DNA of 22,256 bases, taken from contig MU646311.1 in NCBI GenBank assembly GCA_026770585.1, positions 1,407,968-1,430,223 on the forward strand. The letters are read 5' to 3'. A model generated the notes under the pieces. That model saw nothing but the letters and a program-made list of their open reading frames with translations, had not been told where the DNA came from and searched no databases. The translations under genes were made by a program, and so were the position numbers. Of the stretch, positions 683 through 21,838 are shown one piece after another; within the stretch, counting starts at the first letter, position 1; each line of letters opens with the position of its first letter. This DNA comes from Baffinella frigidus (lineage: Eukaryota; Cryptophyceae; Cryptomonadales; Baffinellaceae).

Positions 683-741
683 CTTGCTGGTGTCAACGCC
701 CGCCGCACGCGCCGCCGCCGCCCGGAACTTGTCCCGCACCC
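683..741 (-). CDS. Exon 7: helix of the second domain copy
   Basis: Acceptor ACCCCTAG, 59 nt, phase 1 in and phase 0 out, donor AAG|GTACTC. It reads VRDKFRAAAARAAGVDTSK, parallel to the AFLEKADSIIEVVKTSSGSD helix of exon 4. The following exons should lie left of the window or in the unresolved stretch 67-215. Partial 3'-edge copies at 574-600 and about 460-485 support its border. Confidence 0.6.

Positions 742-21838: not shown

What the first reader, a model, noticed from the sequence alone, without database searches (positions are those of the whole stretch)
683..21751. Edge duplications flank almost every exon of two unrelated genes
In both genes, introns hold partial copies of the neighbouring exon edges together with the splice site: acceptor edges copied upstream (minus exons 3, 5, 6; FTO exons 4, 6, 7, 8, 9, 11, 15) and donor edges copied downstream (minus exons 4, 5, 7; FTO exons 2, 4, 5, 7, 9, 10, 11, 13, 14, 16). 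Copies span about 20-75 exon bases plus intron sequence, in one to five copies with graded divergence. This fits recurrent tandem duplication across exon-intron junctions, and it leaves many decoy splice sites. I know of no named process giving this at nearly all junctions. It may be how introns grow here, or a route to intron gain or sliding.
Basis: partly seen in the sequence, partly recalled or inferred. Interest (0 to 1): 0.9.

Follow-up and report, generated by a model that had tools for sequence, protein, structure and literature searches.

The report
Junction-blind local duplications fill algal introns
In this alga, pieces of exon edges really are recopied into neighbouring introns, but apparently only because short local duplications litter the sampled DNA in general and seldom survive inside exons.

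Summary
The window lies in a 382-Mb genome, evidently Baffinella frigidus: the spliced FTO exons translate exactly into an NCBI Baffinella protein. In FTO, 15 of 32 internal splice edges have a significant copy in the adjacent intron, against 1 of 32 in reverse complement.
But 50-base pieces from intron interiors have copies as often (83 of 207, p = 0.56). In 20 other loci, chosen from kinase and chaperonin hits without regard to duplication, exon edges scored 24 of 92 and other DNA 311 of 1062 (within-locus odds ratio 0.90); exon interiors 0 of 51, though only 7 of those lie in loci that have edge copies. E. coli gave 9 of 186.
So local duplication is pervasive and blind to junctions; purifying selection plausibly shapes what is seen. 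Copies are mostly not head-to-tail: 22 of 229 nearest pairs, median spacer 135 bp. In two exon-edge cases the spacer is, or begins with, an interspersed element. Whether spacers are inserted or pre-existing is unresolved.

The parts
5971..20505 (+). FTO (alpha-ketoglutarate-dependent dioxygenase) gene, 17 coding exons: 5971-6099, 6308-6354, 6648-6712, 7124-7224, 8263-8364, 9273-9363, 10988-11079, 11782-11838, 12498-13151, 13854-13922, 15194-15222, 16259-16311, 17155-17203, 17434-17524, 17915-17986, 19763-19830, 20430-20505
   Evidence: exact spliced alignment to annotated protein P0001; Pfam FTO_NTD and FTO_CTD on the joined exons with most of the exon 9 insertion left out
6857..6941 (+). copy of exon 3 donor edge (31 exon bp); GT lost
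8140..8197 (+). copy of exon 5 acceptor edge (46 exon bp); AG kept
8639..8726 (+). copy of exon 5 donor edge (67 exon bp); GT kept
9532..10334 (+). four copies of exon 6 donor edge starting at 9532, 9748, 9940 and 10181; all four keep GT
10375..10985 (+). array upstream of exon 7 with three copies of its acceptor edge (AG at 10537, 10702, 10869)
11701..11728 (+). copy of exon 8 acceptor edge (26 exon bp after AG at 11701)
11930..12013 (+). copy of exon 8 donor edge (39 exon bp)
12125..12278 (+). copy of exon 9 acceptor edge with 119 aligned intron columns
14548..14595 (+). copy of exon 10 sequence ending 5 bp short of its donor
16133..16155 (+). copy of exon 12 acceptor edge (19 exon bp)
16426..16779 (+). 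three copies of exon 12 donor edge (16426, 16532, 16741); the first has lost GT
17668..17784 (+). copy of exon 14 donor edge (84 exon bp spanned)
18118..18700 (+). three copies of exon 15 (69, 72 and 57 of its 72 bp), all three keep GT, with (CTT)n runs nearby
18913..19555 (+). three copies of exon 16 acceptor edge (18913, 19023, 19523); the nearest is the most similar
20555..20816 (+). two copies of exon 17 sequence (20555, 20711)
3304..3666 (-). three copies (3304-3351, 3518-3571, 3619-3666) on the minus-gene side
   Evidence: gene model not confirmed
7604..7795 (.). foldback (inverted-repeat) element in intron; others include 7965-8160, 13376-13555, 14774-14927, 19144-19286, and after the last annotated exon 20875-21042, 21535-21742

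Best explanation
The exon-edge copies are the visible subset of a widespread process, blind to splice junctions, that recopies short stretches (mostly about 25-120 bp) in the same orientation a few hundred bases away. Purifying selection removes events that break an exon, so surviving copies that involve an exon mostly contain one junction and lie on the intron side: acceptor edges upstream, donor edges downstream. Inside the intron the copy decays while the exon is conserved, which leaves graded copies and potential decoy splice sites. Introns thus grow by repeated local duplication together with MITE-like elements and telomere-like arrays. Shown in the samples: junctions are not enriched, copies are directional, spaced rather than head-to-tail copies predominate, and the intron part of FTO copies is more diverged than the exon part. 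Inferred: the DNA step, most likely repair of staggered breaks or paired nicks, or fork template switching, giving X-filler-X; that selection explains the scarcity in exon interiors; that this enlarged the introns.
For:: FTO edges 15/32 against intron-interior 50-mers 83/207 (p = 0.56); 20 loci: edges 24/92, other DNA 311/1062 (p = 0.55), exon interiors 0/51; 17 of 46 anchor exons in 11 of 20 loci; within-locus odds ratio of edges against other DNA 0.90. Direction: of 11 acceptor hits 10 upstream and 1 downstream; of 13 donor hits 11 downstream and 3 upstream (one both). by BLAST: anchors covered on 1097/8655 bases, background on 28535/162494. E. coli 9/186; Baffinella background without interspersed repeats 238/818, so the rate is not just transposon families; 331 pairs of 85% identity or more, median copy 40 bp, median spacer 195 bp; of 229 nearest pairs 22 are head-to-tail, median spacer 135 bp, and of the 19 at 97% or more, 1; identity of FTO copies 1017/1142 in exon columns and 732/926 in intron columns, after I dropped two faulty rows that matched themselves (printed total 854/1048); in two exon-edge pairs the spacer is, or begins with, interspersed DNA abutting the repeat.
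Against: The exon-interior control is confounded: 44 of its 51 pieces lie in the nine loci that have no edge copy either; in the 11 loci with edge copies it is 0/7 against 190/531 for other DNA. Those nine loci show edges 0/38 while other DNA scores 121/531, so genes differ and edges there are below background. Spacers of young pairs are no richer in interspersed or simple repeats than random stretches (masked 9/61, interspersed 9/61; random 22% and 13%), which does not favour insertion as the general step. True tandem arrays exist (L041). Differences between exons and copies lean to third codon positions (copy-side 13, 14 and 36 for positions 1, 2 and 3), a little more than I would expect for dead copies, though serial copying from an evolving exon could cause it. 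The anchor loci are kinases and CCTs only, with edges set by profile matches rather than transcripts; 8 of 46 anchor matches contain a stop, so their ends run past the exon. Exon conservation makes exon copies easier to detect, so equal rates could hide a lower true rate at junctions.
Confidence: 0.68

Rival explanations
1. A process aimed at exon-intron junctions, for example one linked to splicing or R-loops, duplicates exon edges.
For: Edge copies in 15/32 FTO junctions, with the splice dinucleotide kept in 23 of 25 crossing copies. In the 11 loci with edge copies edges score 24/54 against 190/531 for other DNA, a selection made on the outcome.
Against: No excess over intron interior or other DNA in two samples. 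The kept dinucleotides are near neutral expectation once the invariant real site is allowed for (identity 199/245 at intron positions 3-15; the correction is my reasoning).
Confidence: 0.09
2. Ordinary head-to-tail tandem duplication (slippage or unequal exchange) made the copies; spacers arose later by decay and insertion.
For: Some arrays are tandem: L041 repeats a probable exon edge plus element piece; FTO 10375-10985 and the exon 15 array; L017 pairs with offsets of 108-109. Nearer copies tend to be more similar: 11 against 5 comparisons over five edges, A7 left out.
Against: Among nearest pairs of 97% identity or more, 1 of 19 has a spacer of 5 bp or less; decay cannot erase a spacer copy while its neighbour stays near-identical.
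Confidence: 0.16
3. Insertion of transposable-element pieces with long target duplications makes most exon-edge copies.
For: L022: spacer 4291-4409 is a 119-bp piece of a 155-bp element; 39 other high-scoring genome matches cover that stretch (32 start on its first base) and the flanking repeat is 57 bp at 98%. L024: 34 of 38 genome matches outside the locus start on the first spacer base. In the L022 family, incomplete copies have flush long direct repeats in 8 of 10, complete copies in 0 of 38; the 10 include the seed copy and two from one array.
Against: In ten other families the figures are 2/45 incomplete and 1/60 complete. Foldback elements as a class rarely show it: 6 of 139 (whose control column is invalid because masked N matched N). 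Spacers are not enriched for repeats.
Confidence: 0.15
4. The copies are functional alternative exons or regulatory decoy sites kept by selection.
For: Third-position lean of differences; exon 15 copies keep GT and 57-72 of 72 bp.
Against: Most copies are partial; 4 of 5 exon-part gaps shift frame; other DNA has as many copies.
Confidence: 0.04
5. Assembly error.
For: Draft genome rich in repeats (41.1% repeat space, passages of PMC9756366).
Against: Most copies in FTO differ from the exon by 3-20% in exon columns and lie apart from it; annotated splicing runs past them.
Confidence: 0.03

Closest known systems
Tandem genomic duplication crossing an intron-exon boundary (potato RdRp gene, PMC4974935, abstract read)
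   Same: A duplicated stretch spans exon and intron and carries splice signals with it.
   Different: There a tandem duplication created a new intron in one gene; here copies lie mostly apart, in many loci, and no FTO intron was seen whose two ends are copies of each other.
Intron gain by duplication of an AGGT-containing exon segment (review PMC3443670, passages read)
   Same: Local duplication that spreads splice-like sites.
   Different: Copies here include pre-existing intron sequence (10 or more aligned intron columns in 18 of 25 valid rows), so those introns predate them.
Direct repeats near splice sites (PMC11782384, abstract and first part of the discussion read)
   Same: Direct repeats around introns, ascribed there to break repair or insertion.
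   Different: Those are 4-30 bp and link the two ends of one intron; these are mostly longer and link one edge with a copy inside the intron.
[quoted passage not shown] 2016; paper not held; only its title in a reference list and a passage mentioning paired nicks seen in PMC8316200)
   Same: Would give short duplications of flanking DNA (from the title, otherwise recalled).
   Different: Not tested here; spacers here are long.
Introners, transposon-derived introns (PMC9860276, passages read)
   Same: Short inverted-repeat elements are abundant in these introns.
   Different: Some introner families show 3-9 bp target duplications and introners make up introns; the edge copies are copies of local exon edges. 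A term search of that main text found no cryptophyte, cryptomonad or Guillardia.

Membership tests
[quoted passage not shown]
   22 of 229 nearest pairs have a spacer of 5 bp or less; some arrays do meet it
[quoted passage not shown]
   no FTO pair in the BLAST list (E up to 0.01) joins the end of one exon with the start of the next
[quoted passage not shown]
   the genome tool states that no relatives are held
Insertion at a staggered break with target duplication | foreign DNA flush between direct repeats | tested here: inconclusive
   seen in L022 and, at one end, in L024; L021 not exactly flush; no general enrichment
Introners | element constitutes the intron and supplies or recruits splice sites, short TSD | not tested
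   a MITE-like family with what look like 2-3 bp TSDs (read by eye) was found, but not tested as whole introns
Retro-copies of mRNA | no intron sequence at the junction | tested here: not met
   10 or more aligned intron columns in 18 of 25 valid rows; 25 of 27 copies reach at least across the dinucleotide
Junction-specific duplication | more copies at junctions than at other positions outside exons | tested here: not met
   15/32 against 83/207, and 24/92 against 311/1062; within-locus odds ratio 0.90

The most novel reading that the evidence does not exclude
Short-range, orientation-kept copying of 25-120 bp pieces, sometimes bracketing captured DNA such as broken MITE pieces, is a dominant and continuing source of new non-coding DNA in this alga. 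It runs like a conveyor at exon edges, so that introns lengthen, splice sites are multiplied as decoys, and occasional switches to a copied site could move or create introns.
Probability: 0.25. Interest if true: 0.75.

Novelty: new variant of a known kind. Interest (0 to 1): 0.45.

Why it matters
About three in ten unmasked 50-mers outside the anchor exons have a local copy in the sampled loci. If that holds genome-wide, this genome offers a dense record of how introns grow between guarded exons. It would let one measure rates, breakpoints and splice-site competition directly, and test whether copied sites ever become new introns. It also warns gene annotators that copies of exon edges sit next to about a quarter (24 of 92) of the sampled exon edges here.

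Tried and rejected
Rejected: junction targeting, mRNA retro-copies, plain tandem duplication as the main form, and a general rule that broken elements bring long repeats (true in one family, not in ten others). The search for elements interrupted by a duplication and for elements spanning repeat boundaries was muddied by the palindromes and decided nothing. Third-position bias looked like constraint on copies, but serial copying from an evolving exon explains much of it. One search's control is invalid: masked N matched N. The same flaw touched, so I repeated them. One search has two self-matching rows (A7a, A8), removed from the quoted intron identity. The 331 pairs include pairs that are not nearest neighbours; one search recounts nearest pairs (229). 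One search found terminal inverted repeats in 19 of 254 spacers, 2 of them starting within 5 bp of both spacer ends. No homologue was found for the minus-strand gene model. Published work on introns of this alga was searched for, and duplicated exon edges; nothing matching was seen in those listings beyond the papers named. Searches were wider searches.

Full report
WHAT THE WINDOW IS. The window is G000:C9:1407968-1430223 of an unnamed 382-Mb genome in 1364 contigs. A protein assembled from FTO exons hits an NCBI protein of Baffinella frigidus first (P0001, 615 aa). An exact spliced alignment of P0001 gives 17 coding exons between 5971 and 20505 with identical translation. Pfam finds FTO_NTD and FTO_CTD. 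The published CCMP2293 assembly is reported as 534.5 Mbp in 10,880 scaffolds with 41.1% repeat space, 6.1 times the size of Guillardia theta (passages of PMC9756366), so G000 may be another version; the species name is my inference from P0001.

IS THE OBSERVATION THERE? Yes, largely. Up to 50 exon bases at each internal FTO edge were aligned to the adjacent intron, masked for telomere-like and short-period repeats. 14 of 32 edges beat all 200 approximate dinucleotide shuffles, and 15 of 32 beat all 100 in a second run. The reverse complement gave 1 of 32 in both. Of 27 copies that I aligned, 25 reach across the junction and 23 of those keep GT or AG; 18 of 25 valid rows have 10 or more aligned intron columns. 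Given identity of 199/245 at intron positions 3-15 and an invariant real site, I judge the kept dinucleotides near neutral expectation. The minus-strand copies at 3304-3666 are real sequence, but that gene was not confirmed.

IS IT SPECIAL TO JUNCTIONS? Not in these samples. The same test on 50-base pieces from intron interiors gave 83 of 207, not different from 15 of 32 (p = 0.56). Edges had local copies in 24 of 92, other unmasked DNA in 311 of 1062 (p = 0.55; within-locus odds ratio 0.90). 17 of 46 anchors and 11 of 20 loci had at least one. A BLAST measure agrees: anchors are covered on 1097 of 8655 bases, background on 28535 of 162494. Leaving out interspersed repeats changes little (238 of 818), and 20 kb of E. 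coli gave 9 of 186. No eukaryote was available as a comparison.

WHAT EXON INTERIORS SAY. Pieces 60 bases or more inside anchors gave 0 of 51. This is weaker than it looks: 44 of the 51 lie in the nine loci that have no edge copy either (edges 0/38, other DNA 121/531); in the 11 loci with edge copies interiors are 0/7, edges 24/54 and other DNA 190/531. So genes differ, and exons as a whole are spared in some. FTO exon 9 does hold an internal repeat (12617-12776 against 12759-12923).

WHY IT LOOKS LIKE AN EDGE RULE. Of 11 acceptor hits 10 lie upstream and 1 downstream; of 13 donor hits 11 lie downstream and 3 upstream, one of them both. Copies on the other side would have to lie beyond the exon or in it. 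In FTO copies identity is 1017/1142 in exon columns and 732/926 in intron columns (two self-matching rows dropped; printed total 854/1048). This fits a guarded exon and a decaying copy.

ANATOMY. Local direct repeats of 85% identity or more number 331 pairs in the window plus 20 loci; median copy length is 40 bp and median spacer 195 bp. Counting nearest pairs only, 22 of 229 have a spacer of 5 bp or less, the median spacer is 135 bp, and at 97% or more it is 1 of 19. So most are not head-to-tail, even when young. In L022, 57-bp repeats at a kinase exon's upstream edge (4234-4290, 4410-4466) bracket bases 4291-4409; 39 other high-scoring genome matches cover that stretch, all starting within query bases 109-117 and 32 of them exactly on its first base. 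It is a piece of a 155-bp inverted-repeat element. In L024, 34 of 38 genome matches outside the locus start exactly on the first spacer base, though they end before the spacer does. In the L022 element family incomplete copies have flush long direct repeats in 8 of 10 cases, complete copies in 0 of 38, counting the seed copy and two from one array. Ten other families do not show it (2/45 and 1/60), and spacers of young pairs are no richer in repeats than random stretches (low-copy families are invisible in this sample). L021's element is not exactly flush. L041 is a true tandem array of a probable donor edge with an element piece. The DNA step is therefore open. I favour break or nick repair, or template switching, that leaves X-filler-X, with plain tandem events as a minority.

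OTHER RESULTS AGAINST. Copy-side differences by codon position are 13, 14 and 36, single-copy differences 13, 11 and 28, leaning to third positions more than simple decay predicts; copying at successive times from an evolving exon can do this, but weak constraint on copies is not excluded. Nearer copies are more similar in 11 comparisons and less similar in 5 (five edges typed in, A7 left out). The anchor sample covers two protein families and uses profile ends, not transcripts; 8 of 46 anchor matches contain a stop.

COMPARISON WITH WHAT IS KNOWN. A duplication crossing an intron-exon boundary that made an intron is described in potato (PMC4974935, abstract). Seven proposed routes of intron gain are reviewed in PMC3443670 (passages). 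Short direct repeats around introns are reported in PMC11782384 (abstract and first part of the discussion). Introners are covered in PMC9860276 (passages, where a search for cryptophyte terms found none). The process here resembles the first in kind but differs in scale, spacing and lack of shown intron gain. The listings showed no report of this for Baffinella or as a genome-wide pattern; the library lacks most subscription papers.

VERDICT. Real, found in 11 of 20 further loci as well as FTO, and not specific to junctions: an unusual load of local duplication, with selection plausibly shaping what is seen. Interest 0.45.

Noticed in passing
window 223-330, 768-1144, 2909-3950, 4194-4512, 8371-8431, 17210-17407, 17751-17893, 21885-22256: Degenerate telomere-like heptamer arrays (CCCTAAA and variants) fill introns and flanks; about 11% of the window is telomere-like.
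   Followed up: partly
window 7604-7795, 13376-13555, 14774-14927, 19144-19286, 21535-21742 and others; L006, L012, L016: Many MITE-like foldback element families recur across loci, e.g. TIR CTAATCCGGGGACATG with what look like 2-3 bp target duplications, TAGGCTAACGGCC, CAGGGGTACCTCG. Some sit at or near what look like splice sites (L041, L022), so introner activity is worth testing.
   Followed up: partly
L041 (G000:C47:614664-615621): Tandem array of a probable donor edge with part of a MITE: four copies of the edge, the first two units near-identical.
   Followed up: partly
L006, L008-L013, L016, L018: Nine of the 20 sampled loci have no edge copy at all (0/38) although other DNA there scores 121/531; most of the long anchor exons are in these loci. 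Why some genes are spared is unexplained.
   Followed up: no
G000:C811:139513-139752 and C546:254053-254850: Kinase-profile hits in open frames of 46,653 and 13,283 codons; such giant stop-free stretches are odd and may be repeats.
   Followed up: no
window 17155-17203: FTO exon 13 uses a GC donor in the alignment to P0001.
   Followed up: no
window 12498-13151: FTO exon 9 carries a long low-complexity insertion with internal repeats.
   Followed up: no
L028 32-174 and 237-359: Two different MITE-like elements lie flush with the left ends of two copies of the same flanking stretch, suggesting repeated events at one site.
   Followed up: partly
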